A stretch of 64,000 nucleotides of DNA from Treponema putidum (GTDB lineage: Bacteria > Spirochaetota > Spirochaetia > Treponematales > Treponemataceae): the NCBI RefSeq assembly GCF_000755145.1, contig NZ_CP009228.1:553826-617825 (forward strand), written 5' to 3'. Below, in pieces: positions 5,859 to 23,979 of this stretch. Both the position numbers and the translations under genes were made by a program. The first letter of the stretch is position 1; each line of letters begins with the position of its first letter. The notes beneath the pieces are model-generated. The model saw only the letters and a program-made list of their open reading frames with translations. It made no database searches and was not told where the DNA came from.

Positions 5859-7985
5859 TTATATATGTTTGAATGTCATAATAGTGATATCATCTTCAAT
5901 TTCATGAGCAATATAATCCAAGAAAGTTTTATATATAGCATTCGAAATTTCACTTGCCGACTTTGTCTTATTTGCAGCAATCAAACGGCTTACTCTATCA
6001 TTTCCGAATTTATCTCCTTTTAAGTTTTTAGAATCCAATAAACCGTCAGTAACAAAAACAATAATATCATTACGGTTCATTGTTATTTTTCTTACCTTTA
6101 AAAACGGCCTTATATTTTTTACAAAACCTAATACCCTTCCCTCTCCTTGAATTTCAATAACATTTTTATAAGAATCAATGTACATCGACATAAGAGGAAT
6201 ACCGCAGTTAAGATAATATATTGTAGATTCTTTAAAATCGATAATTCCAAAAAGTCCTGCAAGAAAAGTTCCTTTCGGAAGATTATCTTTAATAAAAGAA
6301 TTTATTTTTACAACCAGCTCTTTAAAATCAGGAGTTTCCGAAAGGTAAGTATGAATAACAGATTTTAAAATTACCATAGACATACTTGCGCTCAATCCCT
6401 TACCGGAAACATCCCCTATCAAAAATAAATACCGATTTTCAGATAATCTAATAAAATCGGTAAAATCTCCGCCCAATTGGTGAGCAGAAAAAGCTACAGA
6501 GTCCACTTCTATTGATTTTTTTTCAACAATATCTATATTCTTTTGAATTGAGCCGATAATTTGATCCGACATTTCTATTTCTCTGTCAAGAATGAGAACT
6601 ATATCCTGCTTCGCTATATTTCTTAAATAATAAACAACCAAAAAGAAGTAAGAATAAAGATTCTTTAATACATCAAAATCATATGAAGTGTAGGCCTCTT
6701 TTCGTTTTTTTGCAGACACGGAAATGACACCTATCAATTTTTGTCCCTCACGAACACAAATCAATATTTCAGCATATGTACTGTTCATAAAACCGATCAA
6801 GTCACTTCTCACGTCCGCAAAATCAGGGTTTGTCAAAACTTGGGACCGCATTATAACCTGAATATTTTCATTTAATAAAAATTCAAAAACAGGTTTGTTA
6901 GTATTAAAAGTAGACGTTACATTTAATGTAGAATAAACAGGTTCCAATATCTCATTTTCGCCGGCAATTAAAATACTAAGAGAACTGGTATGTAAGTGTT
7001 CCAATAAAATATTTGAAAAGTTCTCCATGACTTTTTCACGGCCTTCAGTATAATCAATGTGCTGTAATTTTTCTTCTATAACTTTTGCGTATTCGGAAGT
7101 ATCGCCCAAAAGCCATTTAAATTTTTGTGATACAAAATTTCTAATAACAAAAAAAACAGCAGCACCTATCATCAGCAAAACAATCTGAATATAAAAACTA
7201 CGAATAGAGGTTAAAACTAACGAAGCCCAAAACCCTGTAATTGCAGCAAAAATTAAAATAAAGATCAGGAACCGCAATAAGGCAAAAGCTATTTGTTTTC
7301 TGTCGTAAACCATTGAGGTAGAAAAACCTGATGAGGTAAAAAAAACTAAAAGCAAATATCCCAAGGGCGTTATAGCTATTGCCCATGAAAAAATAGTAGA
7401 AAGATAATATACAAAGCCCCAAAGAATTGCGCTAAAAAAAAGTGCTGCAAAATATATTATCATCTGCTGCCTATAAATTCCGCTTTTTTCTTTAAAAATT
7501 TTATAAATTGAAATCAGCATGGCAAAAAAAGGCATAGCCAAAAGGATTGTCATCAAAAAAATATCTGCAACAGGAATTCCTGCAATCATCTCTGAATTGA
7601 ATTTAAAACCTGATAGAGCATTCCAAAAAAAGCCTCTTATAAATAAAACTGCAAGAACAGCAATCCCTAAATGTAAAATAGAGTTAAACACCGTAAACGG
7701 AATATTTTTTTTACGCTCAAAATAAGGCATTTTTACGGTAAATTGCAAGGTGAAAAATGAGACAAAAACCATTCCAACTATAAATATTTTAGAAAGAATA
7801 ACAATTACGCTCGAAAAGTTAAAATACAGGGCTAATATTAAAAGCAAAAATAGCAAAGTTGTTATGACTATAGTACCTGCGATCATAAAAAGGTCTTTTG
7901 CATAAGGGGCCTTTTTGTAAACTAGGTTTATCGCCAATATAGCTAAAACTACAAGAAAAAAGAATACAAAAACAATCAGTCCCAT
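5859..7985 (-). CDS. Membrane-anchored SpoIIE-type PP2C serine phosphatase with GAF-like region
   Basis: 708 aa. The N-terminal half (about residues 1-290) carries eight or so hydrophobic helices. A GAF-like sensor region follows (about 320-460), then a short coiled linker and the PP2C/SpoIIE domain (about 490-708). The metal-binding motif LIGDVSGKGLSASMSM and the C-terminal FVTDGLLDSKN and DDITIM motifs are intact, so it should be active. It probably dephosphorylates the STAS protein encoded 10 bp downstream in response to a membrane or ligand signal. It is 3 bp downstream of the second phosphatase gene. Confidence 0.9.
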   Translation of the reverse strand: MGLIVFVFFFLVVLAILAINLVYKKAPYAKDLFMIAGTIVITTLLFLLLILALYFNFSSVIVILSKIFIVGMVFVSFFTLQFTVKMPYFERKKNIPFTVFNSILHLGIAVLAVLFIRGFFWNALSGFKFNSEMIAGIPVADIFLMTILLAMPFFAMLISIYKIFKEKSGIYRQQMIIYFAALFFSAILWGFVYYLSTIFSWAIAITPLGYLLLVFFTSSGFSTSMVYDRKQIAFALLRFLIFILIFAAITGFWASLVLTSIRSFYIQIVLLMIGAAVFFVIRNFVSQKFKWLLGDTSEYAKVIEEKLQHIDYTEGREKVMENFSNILLEHLHTSSLSILIAGENEILEPVYSTLNVTSTFNTNKPVFEFLLNENIQVIMRSQVLTNPDFADVRSDLIGFMNSTYAEILICVREGQKLIGVISVSAKKRKEAYTSYDFDVLKNLYSYFFLVVYYLRNIAKQDIVLILDREIEMSDQIIGSIQKNIDIVEKKSIEVDSVAFSAHQLGGDFTDFIRLSENRYLFLIGDVSGKGLSASMSMVILKSVIHTYLSETPDFKELVVKINSFIKDNLPKGTFLAGLFGIIDFKESTIYYLNCGIPLMSMYIDSYKNVIEIQGEGRVLGFVKNIRPFLKVRKITMNRNDIIVFVTDGLLDSKNLKGDKFGNDRVSRLIAANKTKSASEISNAIYKTFLDYIAHEIEDDITIMTFKHI

Positions 7986-13583: not shown

Positions 13584-13622
13584 ATAAAAAACGCCGGTTA
13601 TTCCCGCATAAGAATAACCGGC
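13584..13622 (-). terminator. Rho-independent terminator downstream of the DGR template repeat
   Basis: GCCGGTTATTC (13593-13603) pairs perfectly with GAATAACCGGC (13612-13622) across an 8-nt loop. On the minus strand the stem is followed by GTTTTTTATATA. This ends the minus-strand transcript that contains the template repeat, and insulates the heat-shock operon. Confidence 0.85.
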
Positions 13623-13660
13623 ATTAAAAAGTTTAAGGATGTACATTTTTAAGAGGCTCA

Positions 13661-13802
13661 AGGGCAGACAAGCCAGGCGGAAGCCAAGATTGTTGTTCCT
13701 GTTGTCAGGACTGTTGTTGTTCCGTTTGCCTACAGTGCAGTTGTTCGCGTTGTTGTTCCAGCTGCCGCCGCGTTTAACACGGTTAGTACCCGACGCACCA
13801 CC
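13661..13802 (-). ncRNA. Diversity-generating retroelement template repeat (TR)
   Basis: 142-bp non-coding repeat aligned without gaps to the 3' ends of the lipoprotein genes at 13986-15098 and 16523-17644. On the minus strand it has 39 adenines in its first 134 positions, mostly as AAC codons at the sites that vary in the targets. The VR at 13988-14129 differs at 17 positions and the VR at 16525-16666 at 20 within the core. Every one of these 37 differences is at a TR adenine, and none of the 95 other core positions changes. The only non-adenine changes are three in the last 8 bp of the second VR, beyond the diversified part. This adenine-only pattern is diagnostic of DGR mutagenic reverse transcription. 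The TR has its own promoter and terminator. Confidence 0.93.
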
Positions 13803-13831
13803 TTATAAAGTCCATACCGTTTTTTACTCAA
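13802..13831 (-). promoter_or_regulatory. Putative promoter of the template-repeat RNA
   Basis: Minus-strand TTGAGT (complement of 13826-13831), 18-bp spacer, TATAAG (complement of 13802-13807). Predicted initiation at about 13795 falls at the 5' edge of the template repeat. Together with the terminator at 13584-13622 this would give an RNA of roughly 200 nt. A 6-bp hairpin (AGCCGC/GCGGCT) lies just upstream at 13841-13856. Confidence 0.5.
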
Positions 13832-13899
13832 AAATTTTCGAGCCGCTAAAGCGGCTGACACAGTGCAGTTTTATTTTCAAAAATACACTGCACCACAAA

Positions 13900-13981
13900 A
13901 CACATTTTGCCTATTCGGTTTCACTGCTTCGGGCGGCTTACGCTGCGCCCTCAGCTGCTCAACCTCTCCGGCAAAATGTGT
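13900..13981 (-). repeat. Nested inverted repeat immediately downstream of VR1
   Basis: Outer arms ACACATTTTGCC (13900-13911) and GGCAAAATGTGT (13970-13981) are a perfect 12-bp inverted repeat. Inside is a 20-mer, GGGCGGCTTACGCTGCGCCC (13931-13950), that forms a GGGCG/CGCCC stem. The same 20-mer occurs in the equivalent place after VR2 with unrelated outer arms. The right arm starts 5 bp after the VR1 stop codon. Hairpins next to VRs are known to help DGR target-site recognition; this could be that element, a transcription terminator, or both. Confidence 0.75.
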
Positions 13982-13985
13982 GAAC

Positions 13986-15098
13986 TTAGGGCAGACAAGC
14001 CAGGCGGAAGCCAAGATTGTCGTCCCCGTTGCCAGGACTGTAGTAGTCCCGCCTGCCTACAGTGCAGAAGCTCGCGCTGAGGCTCCAGCTGCCGCCGCGT
14101 TTAACACGGTCAGTACCCGACGCACCACCCTGAGGATCGGTAACAATACCGCCTTGCATATAAGCAGCATCGTTTGATGCAGGGTCATCCTTATACCAAT
14201 CAAAACACCATTCCCAGACATTACCGCTCATATCGTGTAAGCCAAGTGCATTCGCTCTCTTTTTTCCTACAGGATGAGTTTTTCCTCCTGAATTACCACT
14301 ATACCACGCAACCTCTCCTGTTTCCGCAGCATCATTCCAGTCAGCTTTCGCTCCGCTTGCACTGTTTAATTTGATAAGGTATACATCGCCGTATTGTGCC
14401 GCATTTGTTTTATCGCTTCCCTGCCAACGGGCTGCATATTCCCACTCAGCTTCAGTAGGAAGTCTAAAGCCTTTTTTACTCATATCGGCATAAGCGGCAT
14501 CGCAAGAAGCTGTATCAGTCGCATTTTTTAATACCGCAATATCGATTTTGCTTTTGCGGTATACGCATTCTCCCTCGCCCATCGTCTTTGCTGTATACGC
14601 ATTACACCACACAATGCAGTCCCGCCAGCTTATAGTCGTTACAGGCTCTTTTTTTCCTGCTTCTGTGGGAGCGGCTCCTTCGGTTCCGTTATTGCCTTCT
14701 TTTCCCTTATTAGCAAAGGTGTAGCCATTACTTTCTGCCCATGTCAGTACCTCGTGCCATAACTCGTACGTTACCTCTGTTTTGCCCAGCTTGTAGGGGC
14801 TTAATTTCACCTTCCGGTCTTTAATAAATACGCCTTTCCTCCAAGCTTGATTTCCGGGTAAGGTGTAGTTAGGGTCAACGCCTGCAATGGTTGCCTCGGG
14901 AATTGCTACAAACTCGTATACAATTTCAGGGGGTGCAGGCGGCGTGGCACTGCCCGAACCGCTTCCGCCCGCATTATTCGGGCAGCCTGTAAAGACCAGT
15001 GCCAATATTGCGGCTAAGATGAGCGCCGCGGCTCTTTTCAGTGCACAGAGCCTGCCGCTTGAAGCGGCTGAGCTCTTGTTCAAATTTAATTTTATCAT
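13986..15098 (-). CDS. DGR variable lipoprotein, FGE-sulfatase/C-type-lectin fold (VR1)
   Basis: Predicted outer-surface lipoprotein, 370 aa. The signal peptide ends in the lipobox FTGC near residue 39, followed by a Gly/Ser/Pro linker. The formylglycine-generating-enzyme domain follows, with FRLPTEAEWEYAAR, GNVWEWCFDWY and RVKRGGSW. The last 47 codons (13988-14129) are the variable repeat, ending NLGFRLACLP. Residues at variable sites (GSWSLSASFCT, RRDYYSP) form the ligand face in the related T. denticola protein TvpA. The start ATG overlaps the stop of a 33-codon upstream ORF (ATGA). The paralogue at 16523-17644 shares most of the backbone. The ligand is unknown. Confidence 0.9.
   Translation of the reverse strand: MIKLNLNKSSAASSGRLCALKRAAALILAAILALVFTGCPNNAGGSGSGSATPPAPPEIVYEFVAIPEATIAGVDPNYTLPGNQAWRKGVFIKDRKVKLSPYKLGKTEVTYELWHEVLTWAESNGYTFANKGKEGNNGTEGAAPTEAGKKEPVTTISWRDCIVWCNAYTAKTMGEGECVYRKSKIDIAVLKNATDTASCDAAYADMSKKGFRLPTEAEWEYAARWQGSDKTNAAQYGDVYLIKLNSASGAKADWNDAAETGEVAWYSGNSGGKTHPVGKKRANALGLHDMSGNVWEWCFDWYKDDPASNDAAYMQGGIVTDPQGGASGTDRVKRGGSWSLSASFCTVGRRDYYSPGNGDDNLGFRLACLP
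13988..14129 (-). repeat. Variable repeat VR1 of the DGR
   Basis: Gap-free counterpart of the template repeat. 17 of the 39 template adenines are replaced (to G, T or C), and all non-adenine positions are identical, including the GC-rich 3' end that would serve as the mutagenic-homing initiation site. The changes cluster in AAC codons, which can never become stop codons by adenine mutation. Confidence 0.93.
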
Positions 15099-15196
15099 AT
15101 ATTTTCTCCTAAAAAATGATATGCTGTTTCAAGTCCGTCAGAACTGATATCGACCATACCCTTCAAATTATCATCATAACTAAATGATCTAGTCAT
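15095..15196 (-). CDS. Small ORF (33 aa) translationally coupled to the VR1 lipoprotein
   Basis: Begins MTRSFSYDDNLKGMV and ends HFLGENI. It has a strong ribosome site (GGAAGGAG) 6-7 bases before its ATG, and its stop TGA overlaps the ATG of the lipoprotein gene (ATGATAAAA), which has no good ribosome site of its own. It is therefore likely to be translated, either as a coupling leader or as the remnant of a larger gene. I recognise no family. Confidence 0.5.
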   Translation of the reverse strand: MTRSFSYDDNLKGMVDISSDGLETAYHFLGENI

Positions 15197-15266
15197 TTTT
15201 TCTCCTTCCGCATTATGCGAAGTGTACACGGAGGTACAACTGCTCAACAGCCTTCCCGCTGCCGGC

Positions 15267-15343
15267 GCATTTTTTCGTCCCATAGGCTGCTTGCGGGCGG
15301 CTTACGCTGCGCCCGCTTCACCGCCTTGCGTACGAAAAAATGC
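15267..15343 (-). repeat. Nested inverted repeat downstream of VR2
   Basis: Outer arms GCATTTTTTCGT (15267-15278) and ACGAAAAAATGC (15332-15343) are a perfect 12-bp inverted repeat. The inner GCGGGCG (15293-15299) and CGCCCGC (15310-15316) form a 7-bp stem around a 10-nt loop. The inner 20-mer (15295-15314) is identical to that after VR1 while the outer arms differ, so base pairing rather than sequence of the outer stem is kept. Confidence 0.75.
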
Positions 15344-15353
15344 TGTGTAAACT

Positions 15354-16340
15354 CTAGGGACGCGAGACCAGCCGCAAGCCAAGATTGTGGAAGCGGTCGC
15401 CGGGGTCGTCGTCGCGCCGATACGCACGAGCAGCGTAACCCGCACCATCGTTCCAGCCGCCGCCGCGCCCAACACGGTAAGTACCCGACGCACCACCCGC
15501 CGGATCTTGACCGCCTGTAGGCGTACTGTCACTATACCGGTCCCAGCACCATTCCCATACGTTCCCGCTCATGTCGTATAACCCGTAGCCGTTCGCCGAT
15601 TTCAGCTTTACTTGGTGTGTTTTGCCGTTCGCATCGCCTCCGTCATCATTTTTGTACCACGCATAGTTTTTCAGCTCGCTTTTGGTATCCGTTCCCGCCC
15701 ATTTGTCGTTTGTGCCGCCCTGTGCCGCCCATTCCCATTCAGCCTCCGTCGGTAAGCGAAACCCGTTTTTATTCCGGTCGCATACGGCATTATTCCAGTT
15801 TGTATTATTCGATGTCGGTATATTGCTAAAGTTCAGTGTATCGAAGTCTACGCCGGTAACCGTGTAACACGGATCAAGATTGCACGCCTTACTCAGCTTA
15901 TTGCAAAATGCTATACACTGATACCAATTTACCTTCTCTACCGGACGCTTTTCCTGCACTTCGCCGCTTTCAGGCGGGTTGGAACTTCCCTGAAAAATAC
16001 TCGGATTAGTGCTCATCACCGCTTGCCACAGCTCCTGCGTTACTTCGGTTTCACCTATCAAGTACGCGGTAAGGCTTACCGTGTGCGGTGCATTGTTGCT
16101 CACGTCGCTGTACCCTACGGTTCCGTTCGTTACGGCGGCGATGCCTTTCATTGTAAATTGTACGCCGCTTACCGTGTAGGTTTTGTCGGCAGGGGGCGTG
16201 CCGCCTGTACTACCGGCTCCTCCACTTGAGCCCGAACCGCCGGCACTGTTGGGGCAGCCGGTACACAGCAGTACCGCTGCCAATATTGCGGCTGTGATGA
16301 GCGCCGCGGCTCCTCTTTTCTTGTTGTTGATTGTTTTCAT
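15354..16340 (-). CDS. DGR-type variable lipoprotein, FGE-sulfatase fold (VR2, different template lineage)
   Basis: Predicted surface lipoprotein, 328 aa. The signal peptide has lipobox LCTGC and a Gly/Ser-rich linker. The FGE-type domain has FRLPTEAEWEWAAQ, GNVWEWCWDRY and RVGRGGGW, ending NLGLRLVSRP. The last 47 codons (15354-15497) align with the template repeat, but many differences are at non-adenine positions, and the TGCACTGTAGGC block is replaced. It must have been diversified from another template, or be decaying. The start ATG has an AAGGAG site. It sits between the other two variable lipoprotein genes. Confidence 0.87.
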   Translation of the reverse strand: MKTINNKKRGAAALITAAILAAVLLCTGCPNSAGGSGSSGGAGSTGGTPPADKTYTVSGVQFTMKGIAAVTNGTVGYSDVSNNAPHTVSLTAYLIGETEVTQELWQAVMSTNPSIFQGSSNPPESGEVQEKRPVEKVNWYQCIAFCNKLSKACNLDPCYTVTGVDFDTLNFSNIPTSNNTNWNNAVCDRNKNGFRLPTEAEWEWAAQGGTNDKWAGTDTKSELKNYAWYKNDDGGDANGKTHQVKLKSANGYGLYDMSGNVWEWCWDRYSDSTPTGGQDPAGGASGTYRVGRGGGWNDGAGYAARAYRRDDDPGDRFHNLGLRLVSRP

Positions 16341-16404
16341 CTTGAAAATCTCCTTAATTAAAGTTTTATCAATTTGTAATTATATAGTTCGGCTACACCG
16401 CTTT

Positions 16405-16498
16405 ACCGCCATGGACGGCGGTGGTTCCAGCATTACGATGTTTTGCCGTGAGGCAAAACTCGAAACTCAAAATCGGACACGGATGTCCGATTTTGAGT
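16405..16498 (-). repeat. Three consecutive hairpins downstream of VR3
   Basis: Perfect hairpins occur at 16465-16498 (15-bp stem ACTCAAAATCGGACA, 4-nt loop), 16440-16459 (8-bp stem GTTTTGCC, 4-nt loop) and 16405-16422 (6-bp stem ACCGCC, 6-nt loop). They start about 25 bp past the VR3 stop codon. An 8-bp stem with a 4-nt loop after the VR is the geometry known for target recognition in the Bordetella phage DGR. The template repeat has no such hairpins. Confidence 0.8.
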
Positions 16499-16522
16499 AC
16501 CTCTCCGGCAAAATGTGTAAAC

Positions 16523-17644
16523 TCAAGGCCGGCAAGCCAGGCGGAAGCCAAGATAGTAGTTCCTGAAGTCAGGACCGATGAAGTTCCGTCTGCCTACAGT
16601 GCAGAAGTCCGCGTAGTCGTCCCAGCTGCCGCCGCGCCAAACACGGTAAGAACCCGACGCACCACCCTGAGGATCGGTAACAATACTGCCTTGCATATAA
16701 GCAGTATCGTTTGATGCAGGGTCATCCTTATACCAATCAAAACACCATTCCCAGACATTACCGCTCATATCGTGTAAGCCAAGTGCATTCGCTCTCTTTT
16801 TTCCTACAGGATGAGTTTTTCCTCCTGAATTACCACTATACCACGCAACCTCTCCTGTTTCCGCCGTATTCCAGTCAGCTTTCGCTCCGCTTGCACTGTT
16901 TAATTTGGTAAGGTATACCTCACTACCACCTTCGCCGTAGTTTACCGCATTTTCGTTGTTGTTTTGCCGGCGGGCCGCATATTCCCATTCCGCTTCAGTC
17001 GGAAGTCTAAAGCCTTTTTTACTCATATCAGCATAGGCTTTATCGCAAATATATTCTTCCCCATCTTTCGCCTTCGCATTTTTTAATACGGTAGAATCGC
17101 TATCGCTTTTGCGGTATACGCATTCTTCCTCGCCCAACGTCTTTTCCGTATACGCATTACACCATACTATGCAGTCCCGCCAGCTTATATTTGTTACCGG
17201 CTCTTTTTTTCCTTCATCTGTGGGAGCTGCTCCATCAGTACCATGACTGCCTTCTCTTCCCTGATTGACAAAGACGTATCCCTTACCATTATCAGTATTC
17301 CATTTGAGTACACTATACCACAGCTCATAGGTTACCTCCGTCTTGCCTAGCTTGTAGGGGCTTAATTTCACCTTCCGGTCTTTAATAAATACGCCTTTCC
17401 TCCAAGCTTGATTTCCGGGTAAGGTGTAGTCAGGGTCAACGCCCGTAATGGTTGCCCCTTGAATGTCTACAAACTCGTATACGATTTCAGGGGGTGCAGG
17501 CGGCGTGGCACTGCCCGAACCGCTTCCGCCCGCATTATTCGGGCAGCCTGTAAAGACCAGTGCCAATATTGCGGCTATGATGAGCGCCGCAGCTCCCTTC
17601 GTTTTCAAAGCAACTGCTTTGTTGTTTGAATTACTTGTTTTCAT
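16523..17644 (-). CDS. DGR variable lipoprotein, FGE-sulfatase/C-type-lectin fold (VR3)
   Basis: Predicted surface lipoprotein, 373 aa. The signal peptide ends at lipobox FTGC, followed by a linker nearly identical to that of the VR1 protein. The FGE-type domain has FRLPTEAEWEYAAR, GNVWEWCFDWY and RVWRGGSW. The C-terminus NYYLGFRLACRP is encoded by the variable repeat. Twenty core positions differ from the template repeat, all at template adenines. An AAGGAGG ribosome site precedes the ATG. It is an ancient or recent duplicate of the VR1 gene with independent diversification. Confidence 0.9.
   Translation of the reverse strand: MKTSNSNNKAVALKTKGAAALIIAAILALVFTGCPNNAGGSGSGSATPPAPPEIVYEFVDIQGATITGVDPDYTLPGNQAWRKGVFIKDRKVKLSPYKLGKTEVTYELWYSVLKWNTDNGKGYVFVNQGREGSHGTDGAAPTDEGKKEPVTNISWRDCIVWCNAYTEKTLGEEECVYRKSDSDSTVLKNAKAKDGEEYICDKAYADMSKKGFRLPTEAEWEYAARRQNNNENAVNYGEGGSEVYLTKLNSASGAKADWNTAETGEVAWYSGNSGGKTHPVGKKRANALGLHDMSGNVWEWCFDWYKDDPASNDTAYMQGSIVTDPQGGASGSYRVWRGGSWDDYADFCTVGRRNFIGPDFRNYYLGFRLACRP
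16525..16666 (-). repeat. Variable repeat VR3 of the DGR
   Basis: Gap-free alignment to the template repeat. 20 of the 39 template adenines are substituted (mostly to T or G). No other core position is changed. Three non-adenine differences lie in the last 8 bp, at template positions 135, 137 and 141, outside the diversified core. The substituted set differs from that of VR1, so the two were mutagenised independently. Confidence 0.92.
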
Positions 17645-17720
17645 CTTGAAAACCTCCTTGTTTTAATTTGTAATTGGTAATGGGTAATTATCAATTATCC
17701 ATATTGTCTATCATTACACC

Positions 17721-17804
17721 GGTAGATTGGCTACCATTACTGTGGTAGACTGGCTACCATTATGCCGGTAGGGTGCCTACCATTACGTTTGTAGACAGTC
17801 TACC
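17721..17804. repeat. Four 23-bp tandem repeats, each with a GGTAG-N5-CTACC dyad
   Basis: Units begin at 17721, 17744, 17767 and 17790, an exact 23-bp period of about two DNA turns. Each contains a 15-bp dyad such as GGTAGATTGGCTACC, with spacer ATTAC in the first three. The array sits between the DUF4469-like gene and the VR3 lipoprotein. In-phase palindromes suggest a protein-binding array or RNA hairpins in the leader of the lipoprotein mRNA. Confidence 0.75.
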
Positions 17805-17813
17805 GGCTCCGTT

Positions 17814-18509
17814 TTATGCGGCGCACGTGAGCGGTTTGTTGAACCGGCCGGTTTTGTGCGTTTTCAGTTTTTTACCACCCATATCGATTTTTGTCCGCAC
17901 TTCGATGTAGTAGGTACCGGCCGCCAAATCGGCAGGGATTATTGCCATAAGACGCGCGGGTTTGTTTTCGGCGATGACGGCGGCACGGACGGCCTCTCCG
18001 GTTTCGGGTACAAAGAAGATGCCCTGTGCTTCGTCTTTAGCATCGAACTTGAGCCGGCTTCCGACCAGTTGTACCACCCCGCCTTTAGTCAGGGTTGTGT
18101 TTACCGCTCCCGTTACGATGTCGGTAACTTCGGTGATGTAGGGGTCGGTACTTACGCCTTCGGTTTTTTCGCACTTGACTTTGGTAACCGCATCGCGAAG
18201 GAGCGTGCCGGCGGTTATGTTCAAGTTTACCGTGTGCCGCTTTTTATCGAAGCTGTCGTTTGCTCCGTCAAATACGCCGGATATGCTCATCGAGGTGTTC
18301 ATAAGCGGTGTGTTAACGGCCGAGCCGTCTTTGATAATGGCACTTACTACCTCTCCGTAGACTTGCAAGGTTGCCGCCACATCCGCACGCGTGAGCGTGG
18401 TACCTTTTTCCATCATCAGGTCTATAATCTCGTCAAGAGTGTACGAGCGCACATCAGTTGCCTGTGCCATGTAGTCGTCCGGCGCAGGGGTGAGTAAGTT
18501 TTCGCGCAA
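17814..18509 (-). CDS. DUF4469-like protein (HU-like N-domain, Ig-like C-domain), unusual start
   Basis: 231 aa from the first usable start (TTG 18509). The N-terminal part (YTLDEIIDLMMEKGTTLTR) resembles the HU-type DNA-binding domain, and the C-terminal part (LMAIIPADLAAGTYYIEVRT) the Ig-like DUF4469 domain. The protein probably really begins five codons upstream. A perfect AAGGAG lies 6 bases before an ATA codon at 18522-18524 that reads ILKYCLRENLLTP, the usual N-terminus of this family. An ATG-to-ATA change therefore seems to have weakened translation. It precedes the variable lipoprotein genes in the same direction. Confidence 0.75.
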   Translation of the reverse strand: MRENLLTPAPDDYMAQATDVRSYTLDEIIDLMMEKGTTLTRADVAATLQVYGEVVSAIIKDGSAVNTPLMNTSMSISGVFDGANDSFDKKRHTVNLNITAGTLLRDAVTKVKCEKTEGVSTDPYITEVTDIVTGAVNTTLTKGGVVQLVGSRLKFDAKDEAQGIFFVPETGEAVRAAVIAENKPARLMAIIPADLAAGTYYIEVRTKIDMGGKKLKTHKTGRFNKPLTCAA

Positions 18510-21300: not shown

Positions 21301-22917
21301 TTATAAAAGAGTTTCGGTTTTCCAGTCTTTTATGGTGCGTTCTTTTTCATCAAAGGATGAACCGATTAAGACAATCTTTTTACCGCTTGATTTAAAAGGA
21401 ACTGCATAGCCTTTTTCTTTTATCTGTGCTATTGCATCTGCCGAGCTTCCGTTTCCGTCAAGTTTAAATTCAAAGATATAAACCGCATCTGCCGTGTGAA
21501 CAATACAGTCTGCTCTTCCGGCTGCACAGTGTATTTCGGTTTCGACAAACTGTCCCATCAGCTTAAAAATCAAATAAACGGCCGTCTGATAGTTTTGCTC
21601 CCTAAGCTTTAATTTTTCTTTGGGAAGATTATCGTAAGGAATTCCGGCAATTATGGACTTCATTCTTTCCATAAAACCGTCCACATTTCCTGCCTTTACA
21701 TCTTCAACAAAACGCCAAACGGAAGAAGCCGTTTGATCAGCACGCAAAGAAGTATAGTCCGGCAAAAGATTTTTTAGAAACCCGTAGCGGACCTCATCAT
21801 TAGGAAAACCTAACCTGTAAAGGGCTGCTTCTCTTATATATTCTTTTATTGTTAAATATCCTGCCTGAAATAAAATCGGAAGAGGGTTCTTTGTGTCGGC
21901 TCGGTAATCGGATAAGCCGGCCTCATCAAGCTCAATATTCCCGTCTAAGTCGGGAATATTATAGTGAGCATCTTTTAGATAGTTTACCAAAAAGGTCGGA
22001 GTTCCTGTTGCAAACCAATAACTGCCGGCATTGTTTGCCGAAAAAACATTTAAAATACTGAATGGGTTATAGACGCTTTCCCCTGCGCCGGCAAACAAGT
22101 AGCCGTCATATCGCTTCTTTAAAAGCTCTACACAGGATTCATAGCTTATCTTTTCTTTTTCTGCCAAGGCCTCAATTTCAGGCTTAAAAGTAAGGTGCAA
22201 TTCTTTTTCGGTAATACCGCAAATTGAAGAGTAAGATTCGTGTAAACTTATATCCTGCAAATTATTTAAATCGCTAAAAATACTTATCTTACTGAATTTT
22301 GTTACGCCCGTTAAAAACGAAAAGCGGATATATTGGTCGCAAGTTTTTAAAACAGAATAAAAAGATTTAAGCGTGCTTCGGAATTCTTCGTTTAGGGCTT
22401 CATTTACATACATTGTCTGTAAAAGAGGCTTGTCATACTCGTCTACGAGGATAACGACCTTTTTTCCGGTTTTTTCATAAGCTGTTTGTATTAAAAAGGC
22501 AAAGCGTTTACCAAAAGACAATCTACTTGTCTTCAATCCAAGACGTTTTTCTTCATTTTGCAAAAAGAATTCAAGACTTTCGTTCAATGAATCAGGTAAA
22601 TCATAACGCCCCATATTAAAATCCAAGTATAGGACAGGGTATTCAATCCAAGGCTCTGAGCCTTCCGACTTAGCCCTTTCTTCTTCAGCCTTTTCAATAT
22701 ATAAGCCTTTAAAAAGGTCTTTCTTTCCCAAAAAATAGGCTGCAAGCGTAGAAAGGAAAAGGCTTTTTCCAAATCGGCGCGGGCGGCTTAAAAAATAGGG
22801 AGACGAGGTTAAAATCAGCCTAAAAAGATGCTCTGTTTTATCAACATAAAGATATTTATCTGTTCTAAGTTTTTCAAAACTTTGAATGCCGATAGGCAGC
22901 TTTCTATAAAGATTCAT
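21301..22917 (-). CDS. AAA-ATPase-like protein with C-terminal PD-(D/E)XK nuclease domain
   Basis: 538 aa, of a family common in treponemes and Bacteroidetes. The N-terminal ATPase-like domain has RPRRFGKSLFLSTLAAYFLG (Walker A, about residues 40-60) and VVILVDEYDKPLL (Walker B). The C-terminal nuclease-like domain contains GRADCIVHTADAVYIFEFK, with D and ExK catalytic residues. Cellular function is unknown. ATG 22917 (MNLYRKLPIG) follows AAGGAGG; the longer open frame upstream is not supported. It is divergent from the Rpn-type nuclease gene. Confidence 0.88.
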   Translation of the reverse strand: MNLYRKLPIGIQSFEKLRTDKYLYVDKTEHLFRLILTSSPYFLSRPRRFGKSLFLSTLAAYFLGKKDLFKGLYIEKAEEERAKSEGSEPWIEYPVLYLDFNMGRYDLPDSLNESLEFFLQNEEKRLGLKTSRLSFGKRFAFLIQTAYEKTGKKVVILVDEYDKPLLQTMYVNEALNEEFRSTLKSFYSVLKTCDQYIRFSFLTGVTKFSKISIFSDLNNLQDISLHESYSSICGITEKELHLTFKPEIEALAEKEKISYESCVELLKKRYDGYLFAGAGESVYNPFSILNVFSANNAGSYWFATGTPTFLVNYLKDAHYNIPDLDGNIELDEAGLSDYRADTKNPLPILFQAGYLTIKEYIREAALYRLGFPNDEVRYGFLKNLLPDYTSLRADQTASSVWRFVEDVKAGNVDGFMERMKSIIAGIPYDNLPKEKLKLREQNYQTAVYLIFKLMGQFVETEIHCAAGRADCIVHTADAVYIFEFKLDGNGSSADAIAQIKEKGYAVPFKSSGKKIVLIGSSFDEKERTIKDWKTETLL

Positions 22918-23073
22918 TATGAGCCTCCTTAGCTTTTTTTTATAATTATATAACAAAATACCCTTATGTACAAGCTGAGCTAACACGGAAACTTTAACAG
23001 GAAATCTTTCCCTAACGCTCCCTTTTAAAATACGCTCATCTGTGGTATAATACAATCAAGAGAGGGCATAGTT

Positions 23074-23979
23074 ATGACTACTTCAAACAGGAAATATAAA
23101 GACTCAGTGTTTGTCGACCTTTTCAGTGAAGATGAAAAGGCTAAGGAAAATTTCTTGTCGCTTTATAATGCTTTACATGGAACAAGTCTGCCGCTTTCGT
23201 CTCCTGTCGAAAATATACGGCTTGAGAACGTTATGTACATGAACATAATCAACGATGTTTCCTGCCTTGTAGATAATAAGATTATTGTGCTTGCAGAGCA
23301 CCAATCCACAATAAACGAAAATATGCCGTTACGCTTTTTAGAATACATCGCCCGGATCTATGAAAAACTGCAAGCACCGACAGACAGGTATTTAAGAAAA
23401 TTGTCAAAAATACCTACGCCTGAATTCTATGTTTTTTATAATGGCAAGGAAGACTATCCTGAAACTACGGTTCTAAAACTTTCGGATGCATTTATAACAA
23501 AGCCCGAACACGCTCCGCTGGAACTTACGGTTCAAGTACTTAATATCAACACGGACAAAGCAAACAAAATCTTAGCAGACTGCAAACCGCTTGAAGAATA
23601 CAGTCTCTTTGTAGAAGAGGTAAGAAAACAAACCCAACTTGACAGCGAAAACGGCTTTACCAATGCGGTAAAAATATGTATAGAAAAAGGAATCTTAAGA
23701 GAATATTTACAGCGAAAATCACGGGAGGTAATAAATATGTTAGTAGCAGAATACGACTATGATACGGATATTGCGGTACAGAGGGAAGAAAGTTTAAGGA
23801 TAGGTATCCAGCAAGGTATCCGGCAAGGTGTACAACAAGGCATACAACAAGGCTTTGCCGACGGTTCATACAAAAAAGCTCTTGAAACGGCAAAATTGAT
23901 GAAACATGCGAATTGTGAACTTGATTTTATTATGCAGATGACCGGTCTCAGTAAAGAAGAAGTGGAAGCACTGAATTAG
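23074..23979 (+). CDS. Rpn family recombination-promoting nuclease / PD-(D/E)XK transposase-like
   Basis: 301 aa, of the Rpn/PF12784-type family. The start KYKDSVFVDLFSEDE and the core VDNKIIVLAEHQSTINENMP with PLRFLEYIARIYE match the nuclease domain, in which E and Q of EHQ are the usual catalytic positions. Near the C-terminus a short internal repeat (GIQQG/GIRQG/GVQQG) is followed by a helical tail. Such genes are multicopy in treponemes and are linked to RecA-independent recombination. A TATAAT at 23046-23051 and a GAGAGG site precede the start. Confidence 0.85.
   Translation: MTTSNRKYKDSVFVDLFSEDEKAKENFLSLYNALHGTSLPLSSPVENIRLENVMYMNIINDVSCLVDNKIIVLAEHQSTINENMPLRFLEYIARIYEKLQAPTDRYLRKLSKIPTPEFYVFYNGKEDYPETTVLKLSDAFITKPEHAPLELTVQVLNINTDKANKILADCKPLEEYSLFVEEVRKQTQLDSENGFTNAVKICIEKGILREYLQRKSREVINMLVAEYDYDTDIAVQREESLRIGIQQGIRQGVQQGIQQGFADGSYKKALETAKLMKHANCELDFIMQMTGLSKEEVEALN

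What the first reader, a model, noticed from the sequence alone, without database searches (positions are those of the whole stretch)
13661..17644. A diversity-generating retroelement template repeat with two proven-by-pattern target genes
I aligned the TR (13661-13802, minus strand) base by base with VR1 (13988-14129) and VR3 (16525-16666). VR1 has 17 substitutions and VR3 has 20 in the first 134 positions. All 37 are at the 39 template adenines and none at the 95 other core positions. Random mutation cannot give this; adenine-specific reverse transcription does. Both targets are lipoproteins with the FGE/C-type-lectin fold, the scaffold of T. denticola TvpA (established). This appears to be a surface-display diversification locus with at least two co-local targets.
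Basis: partly seen in the sequence, partly recalled or inferred. Interest (0 to 1): 0.95.

Follow-up and report, generated by a model that had tools for sequence, protein, structure and literature searches.

The report
Orphaned mutation template beside frozen targets
In the mouth spirochaete Treponema putidum, a DNA template that marks which letters of likely surface-protein genes get scrambled sits beside genes that carry that scrambling pattern, but no enzyme that could do the scrambling was found in the genome, so the system is probably a recently stranded one with its variants frozen.

Summary
TR 13661-13802 (-) against VR1: 17 of 17 substitutions at TR adenines. Against VR3: 20 of 20 in the first 134 positions, plus 3 non-A in the last 8. 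Chance is about 1e-11 and 2e-13. A third target, VR2, was missed and does not fit this TR.

A working locus is not supported. The genome is Treponema putidum OMZ 758. No reverse transcriptase, DGR HRDC gene or TR spacer was found in it. So this is an orphan TR with probably frozen targets.

It recurs: three other genomes without an intact RT (G003, G007, G067) hold an unmutated TR and leader behind a target; the four TR matches end at about position 97-149. The T. putidum and G007 units are 99.6% identical over 261 bp, while dnaK-grpE differs by 11%.

Prior work: RT-less T. denticola strains with targets but no TR (PMC4891356), DGRs with truncated RTs (PMC3521204), TR-VR pairs in RT-less gut phage genomes (PMC8241571). 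New here: recurrent RT-free template units that probably travel between species.

The parts
13654..13802 (-). Template repeat (TR): 142 nt homologous to the VRs plus about 7 nt shared with the T. denticola TR end; then the match to that DGR stops
13803..13929 (-). TR leader, with related sequence upstream of the TRs of G001, G003, G007 and (in part) G067
13590..13625 (-). Terminator-like hairpin of the grpE upstream region, where spacer, HRDC and RT would be expected
13988..14129 (-). VR1: 17 of 17 differences from TR at adenines
13986..15098 (-). Target 1, 370 aa, FGE-sulfatase (C-type lectin) domain, lipobox-like N terminus by eye
15356..15497 (-). VR2: 26 A and 22 non-A differences; written by another TR, or old
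15354..16340 (-). Target 2, 328 aa, FGE-sulfatase domain
16525..16666 (-). VR3: 20 A differences, plus 3 non-A in the last 8 positions
16523..17644 (-). Target 3, 373 aa, FGE-sulfatase domain
16405..16502 (+). Rfam TD-2 element just downstream of VR3 (listed on the opposite strand); a 15-bp inverted repeat begins 26 nt after VR3
17814..18509 (-). HU-DNA_bdg + DUF4469 protein, 231 aa, also near target genes in other species; possible cassette passenger

Best explanation
This Treponema putidum locus is a diversity-generating retroelement template repeat with three target genes, two of them differing from it almost only at its adenines, in a genome where no reverse transcriptase, DGR-type HRDC gene or template spacer was found, so its targets are most likely frozen products of a retroelement that recently lost its machinery. 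Shown: the A-only pattern, no hit to the machinery, and the same arrangement (target - leader - unmutated TR, then unrelated DNA) in three other genomes without an intact RT. Inferred: an RT used a TR of this sequence to write VR1 and VR3. Later, recombination with a breakpoint inside or just past the 3' part of the TR, where TR and VRs share sequence, cut the template off from spacer, HRDC and RT. This happened either by deletion in this lineage or because only target plus TR was taken in from another treponeme. The targets stay open and would now display fixed variants.
For: A-only pattern: 17/17 and 20/20. RVT_1 finds nothing in G000 but finds the RT of G001. The RT, HRDC and spacer queries, taken from G001 itself, find no RT, no spacer and only a 627-aa frame with an HRDC match in G000. 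In BPP-1 the spacer recruits the RT complex and primes cDNA synthesis (PMC12875486, passages), so even a borrowed RT would probably not read this template. Orphan TRs also in G003 (match ends at about 97), G007 (136) and G067 (130), besides G000 (149); no full-length RT in G003 or G007 and no RT match in G067. Their neighbouring VRs are A-biased: over all 142 positions 21 A / 2 other and 22/12 in G007. In the stretches trimmed by the scan, which penalises non-A changes, they are 21/21, 16/16 (G007), 17/17 (G003) and 12/13 (G067). Recency: 0 non-A changes at 198 sites (VR1 103; VR3 95, its last 8 positions left out). Other stages of decay: G007 keeps only two ends of its RT beside an overwritten TR; the G065 RT is interrupted by a stretch with stops.
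Against: Loss is inferred from absence: no T. putidum strain with the full element was available. The TR is unmutated and its core more conserved than its leader (G000-G067: core 109/112, leader 109/135), which could also mean that it is still in use. The VRs are as fresh as, or fresher than, those of the RT-bearing G001. Orphan TRs are not the rule: 9 of 12 family genomes with a TR-like match had an RT match, and I did not look at the templates of 7 of these 12. Only the G007 join looks like TR-VR recombination (it runs in frame into a stop codon); G003 and G067 join unrelated sequence, and G000 the grpE terminator.
Confidence: 0.82

Rival explanations
1. The targets were written in another treponeme and came in ready-made with the TR; T. 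putidum never had the RT at this site. (A route within the frozen reading, not against it.)
For: G000 and G007 share TR and leader at 99.6% over 261 bp, although dnaK-grpE is 89% identical. The HU/DUF4469 gene beside the targets is 94.7% identical in nucleotides to one in G110, of another genus, but 90.4% and 84.9% (G003) and 87.4% (G007) to those of its own genus. The site differs between species: grpE in G000 and G003, beside an EF-G gene in G007.
Against: G003 has a target of the same TR type at the same grpE site (12 A / 0 non-A against this TR) with ordinary divergence just before the VR (23 differences in 300 bp), which fits residence in both lineages followed by local rewriting.
Confidence: 0.35
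2. The DGR still works: an RT is supplied in trans by a plasmid, a phage or another locus not in the assembly.
For: VRs are fresh and the TR is pristine. RT relatives with 82-100% identity exist in public data (P0001-P0005).
Against: No RVT_1 in a genome of 99.9% completeness, plasmid included. The spacer that BPP-1 needs follows none of the four orphan TRs. No match of the TR in 50,697 phage records and no exact match of a 24-nt core in IMG/VR.
Confidence: 0.07
3. The orphan TR serves as a silent donor for ordinary gene conversion that resets VRs, as silent cassettes do in other bacteria (recalled).
For: In G007 the TR runs in frame into a stop codon, as if TR and a VR tail had recombined. 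VR1 is unchanged from TR over positions 20-46.
Against: Conversion would erase A differences in tracts; both VRs carry them over most of their length, at 17 and 20 of 39 adenines, as RT writing would give.
Confidence: 0.06
4. Artefact: the RT module was lost in laboratory passage of the type strain or in assembly.
For: Only one T. putidum genome was available here.
Against: The same truncated arrangement in three other genomes, at other sites and with other breakpoints.
Confidence: 0.05

Closest known systems
T. denticola ATCC 35405 DGR (TvpA, TR, HRDC gene, RT; PMC4891356)
   Same: TR 94% identical; homologous leader; same class of FGE/C-type-lectin targets; adenine-biased differences
   Different: ATCC 35405 has spacer, HRDC and RT next to its TR; none of them was found in T. 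putidum
RT-less T. denticola strains with leftover targets (PMC4891356, Table 1)
   Same: Targets with A-biased VRs and no RT
   Different: The paper lists 0 TR and 0 RT for its 8 such strains; here a complete, unmutated TR with leader persists
DGRs whose RT is truncated by transposon, nonsense or frameshift (PMC3521204, passages)
   Same: A-exchange pattern beside a dead RT, which the authors call possibly very recent inactivation
   Different: There an RT gene is still present; here RT, accessory and spacer are gone and the break lies at the TR end
TR-VR pairs in gut phage genomes without RT (PMC8241571, passages: 6.5% of 53,630 genomes)
   Same: TR and VR without an RT in the same genome
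   Different: Counted there by DGRscan in phages; the passages I saw do not examine them. Here bacterial, at chromosomal loci, with breakpoints compared across species
Bordetella phage BPP-1 DGR
   Same: TR/VR logic; inverted repeat downstream of some VRs
   Different: No RT, HRDC or spacer here; different target family

Membership tests
Diversity-generating retroelement (complete) | TR/VR pair differing almost only at TR adenines | tested here: met
   17/17 and 20/20
Diversity-generating retroelement (complete) | DGR-type reverse transcriptase | tested here: not met
   no hit in the genome; RVT_1 finds the RT of G001
Diversity-generating retroelement (complete) | Accessory gene (Avd or HRDC) | tested here: not met
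   HRDC: only a match in a 627-aa frame, probably a helicase; Avd was not searched
Diversity-generating retroelement (complete) | Spacer 3' of TR that primes cDNA | tested here: not met
   no match in G000; matches in G001 (source of the query) and the G007 core
Diversity-generating retroelement (complete) | 3' ends differing between TR (IMH*) and VR (IMH) | tested here: inconclusive
   VR3 differs from TR at 3 sites in its last 8; VR1 is identical over the 142 nt apart from A sites and departs right after
Diversity-generating retroelement (complete) | Hairpin downstream of VR | tested here: inconclusive
   15-bp stem after VR3 (0 of 60 shuffles); after VR1 and VR2 shuffles reach it in 32 and 5 of 60
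TvpA-type variable lipoprotein | FGE/C-type-lectin domain with the VR at its C terminus | tested here: met
   PF03781 in all three; 2y3c E 8e-42 for target 1
TvpA-type variable lipoprotein | Lipidation and surface exposure | not testable with these tools
   lipobox-like TGC motif by eye only

The most novel reading that the evidence does not exclude
In oral treponemes the DGR has split into two separately inherited parts: a portable cassette of target genes plus pristine template, which spreads between species on its own as an archive of what may vary, and a short-lived RT module that comes and goes; orphan templates are kept because they can reset or re-diversify targets when partner sequences return.
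Probability: 0.1. Interest if true: 0.8.

Novelty: new variant of a known kind. Interest (0 to 1): 0.47.

Why it matters
Several DGR surveys whose passages I saw start from the RT (PMC6199706, PMC8144416), so templates without RT are easily missed or left unexamined. A recurrent orphan TR suggests how a hypermutation system dies: the template outlasts the enzyme and recent variants freeze. These species would be natural experiments on what the variation was worth. If the cassette truly spreads without RT, the DGR is not one element but a set of parts with separate histories.

Tried and rejected
Considered and dropped. (1) T. denticola origin: contig sizes match T. putidum OMZ 758 (2,796,913 bp plus a 3,649-bp plasmid identical to pTS1). 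(2) A full DGR elsewhere in the genome: no RT hit. (3) A DGR at the T. denticola site, between an ABC transporter and an MCP gene: G000 has other DNA there; G002 has an empty site; in G007 the MCP gene is gone too and the ABC gene adjoins the next block; G003 has target sequence but no RT. (4) A phage source: no hit in the phage records or for a 24-nt core in IMG/VR. (5) VR2 as a product of this TR: 22 non-A differences. (6) The orphan TR as a cDNA insertion: all 39 adenines read as in a template, unlikely for a mutagenic RT. (7) TD-2 in the 104-motif paper: no mention in its main text (PMC2864571). (8) Literature: searches are listings, several mostly off topic; 'Treponema putidum' with 'diversity-generating retroelement' gave 0 papers. 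Following one listing up brought prior art that I had not counted at first: RT-less phage genomes with TR-VR pairs (PMC8241571) and truncated RTs (PMC3521204). I lowered interest for it. PMC6199706 and PMC8867640: passages only. I found no description of RT-free TRs in treponemes in these; subscription papers are mostly not held. The table mixed strands and was replaced.
Full report
OBSERVATION. On the minus strand, TR 13661-13802 was compared base by base with the three repeats that the repeat finder puts in one family with it. VR1: 17 differences, 17 at TR adenines. VR3: 23 differences, 20 at adenines, the other three at positions 135, 137 and 141. VR2 (not in the finding): 48 differences, 26 at adenines. 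Hypergeometric chance for the first two is about 1e-11 and, over the first 134 positions, 2e-13. The rest of targets 1 and 3 differs at 118 of 950 sites without preference for A; inside the VR 26 of 29 differences between them lie at TR adenines. A blind scan for A-only repeat pairs in 91 loci flagged 5: this window, one locus each of G001, G003 and G007, and one Opitutia locus with its own RT and HRDC match. It did not flag the T. vincentii locus L013, which has RT and HRDC; a second run flagged 1 of 8 loci, that of G067.

ORGANISM. The window lies in G000, contigs of 2,796,913 and 3,649 bp. The small contig is 100% identical to plasmid pTS1. The T. putidum OMZ 758 paper gives these sizes (PMC4208330; start of abstract, passages). 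G001 is T. denticola ATCC 35405: 2,843,201 bp, with TR and target where PMC4891356 puts them; the RT position printed there is for ATCC 35404 and agrees. That paper was read in parts 1-5 of 6.

THE MACHINERY WAS NOT FOUND. PF00078 finds nothing in G000, while it finds the RT of G001. The other queries come from G001 itself. Its RT protein finds nothing in G000 at E<=0.1. Its HRDC protein finds only a 627-aa frame, probably a helicase. Its 134-nt spacer finds nothing. After about 149 nt of TR-like sequence the locus runs into the terminator upstream of grpE, which G001, G002 and G003 share without a TR there. In BPP-1 the spacer recruits the RT complex and primes cDNA synthesis (PMC12875486, passages), so this template would probably be unreadable even with an RT.

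IT RECURS. G007 holds the same TR up to position 134 with the same leader (99.6% over 261 bp), though dnaK-grpE is 89% identical between the two. It lies at another site, beside an EF-G gene. G003 holds a T. denticola-type TR with leader, cut at about 97. G067, of another genus, holds one cut at about 130. No RT was found in G003 or G067 (RT protein only). In G007 only two ends of an RT remain (residues 1-18 and 332-364) at a further place. There they sit with HRDC fragments, the spacer and a template position that has itself been overwritten: 20 adenine and 6 other differences from the ATCC 35405 TR, and a VR-like 3' end. That could be self-homing or recombination with a VR; I cannot tell. 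In G065 the RT is interrupted by a stretch with stop codons. So of seven genomes with a TR in the alignment, two have an apparently intact RT, one an interrupted one, and four none or only remnants. This is not a random sample. The genus set is all 8 genomes held. In the family, 44 of 195 genomes matched leader+TR, 39 of them outside the genus; I tested 12 of these for RT and 9 had a match. I fetched loci of 5 of the 12 (G059, G065, G067, G071, G110); in G059 and G110 I saw no clear TR. Orphan TRs are thus recurrent, not general.

RECENCY. TR against VR1 (103 non-A sites) and VR3 (95 sites in the first 134) shows no non-A change: 0 of 198; VR3 has 3 changes at the 8 sites left out. At the same grpE site, G003 carries a target whose VR differs from the T. 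putidum TR at 12 positions, all adenines, and from VR1 at 11, all TR adenines, while the 300 bp just before the VR differ at 23 sites. So both VRs were probably rewritten from a TR of this sequence after the two lineages parted; no RT was found in either genome. The nine VRs of the RT-bearing G001 show 2 to 18 non-A core differences against their own TR in an ungapped comparison, two of them (17 and 18) hardly alike, so freshness alone does not show current activity. The TR core is more conserved than its leader (G000-G067: 109/112 against 109/135). That fits long use and recent loss but does not exclude present use.

MECHANISM. Best reading: an RT wrote VR1 and VR3 from this template; then an event with a breakpoint inside or just past the 3' part of the TR separated target+TR from spacer, HRDC and RT. 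The four orphan matches end between TR positions 97 and 149, and neither spacer, HRDC nor RT follows in any of them. TR and VRs share their 3' block, which offers homology for such an exchange; the G007 TR runs in frame into a stop codon like a target gene end, the others do not show this. Deletion here and import of a ready-made cassette remain open. The identity between T. putidum and G007, and the HU/DUF4469 neighbour shared at 94.7% with another genus, favour some horizontal exchange.

TARGETS. All three are open and carry PF03781; target 1 matches TvpA (2y3c, E 8e-42). Lipidation was judged by eye only. Surface display is taken from published predictions for TvpA (PMC4891356), not tested here.

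SIDE RESULT. Rfam TD-2 (RF03162), a motif with no function known to me, lies 4-40 bp downstream of 15 of 26 VR entries by a partial hand-copied list, 16 with G001:854193 from the list. Random placement would give about 0.1%, but the targets are paralogues and may have inherited it. The 26 include the overwritten template of G007. Of these 26, 14 have a perfect inverted repeat with arms of 12 bp or more in the next 100 nt, which 0 of 60 shuffles reach; VR1, VR2 and tvpA do not. Against a link to homing: 3 of the 4 TR entries are also followed by an inverted repeat that no shuffle reaches. BPP-1 needs a hairpin just downstream for efficient homing; in phage DGRs the distance is 4-34 bp (PMC3240598, passages and introduction). 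TD-2 has up to 72 matches per genome at E<=0.001 and may simply be a terminator.

NOVELTY. DGRs, T. denticola targets and RT-less strains with leftover targets are known (PMC4891356, which lists no TR for its 8 RT-less strains). DGRs with truncated RTs (PMC3521204, passages) and TR-VR pairs in 6.5% of 53,630 RT-less gut phage genomes (PMC8241571, passages) are in print too. What I did not find in the searches named in Tried and rejected is RT-free template units in treponemes, their shared breakpoint zone, or their near identity between species.

Noticed in passing
window 16405-16502; G000-G003 and G007: Rfam TD-2 elements lie 4-40 bp downstream of 16 of 26 VR entries; stems of 14-15 bp begin mostly 5 or 26-27 nt after the VR, with different stem sequences. 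Possible DGR homing hairpin, or a terminator inherited with the targets.
   Followed up: partly
window 17814-18509; L128, L129, L131, L192, L196, L154: An HU-DNA_bdg + DUF4469 gene lies near target genes in several species and is 94.7% identical in nucleotides between T. putidum and G110 of another genus; passenger or accessory of the target cassette.
   Followed up: partly
L134 about 5893-6625 (G007): A DGR core whose template position carries adenine mutations and a VR-like 3' end, followed by spacer, broken HRDC and an RT with its middle missing.
   Followed up: partly
L191 3654-4946 (G065): DGR RT interrupted by a stretch with several stop codons, near a TR-like sequence.
   Followed up: no
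window 15356-15497: VR2 differs from the TR at 22 non-A sites: written by another template type or long unmaintained.
   Followed up: no
window 21301-23979: AAA-ATPase_like/PDDEXK_9 and Transposase_31 genes near the cassette; Transposase_31 relatives occur in 13 other of 102 loci searched.
   Followed up: no
window 17705-17819: Imperfect repeats with a 23-bp period containing TACCATTA upstream of target 3.
   Followed up: no
L044 5142-7255 (Opitutia MAG): An FGE-type target locus with an 85-bp A-only repeat pair (18/18), HRDC and RT matches: a DGR of similar make outside spirochaetes.
   Followed up: no
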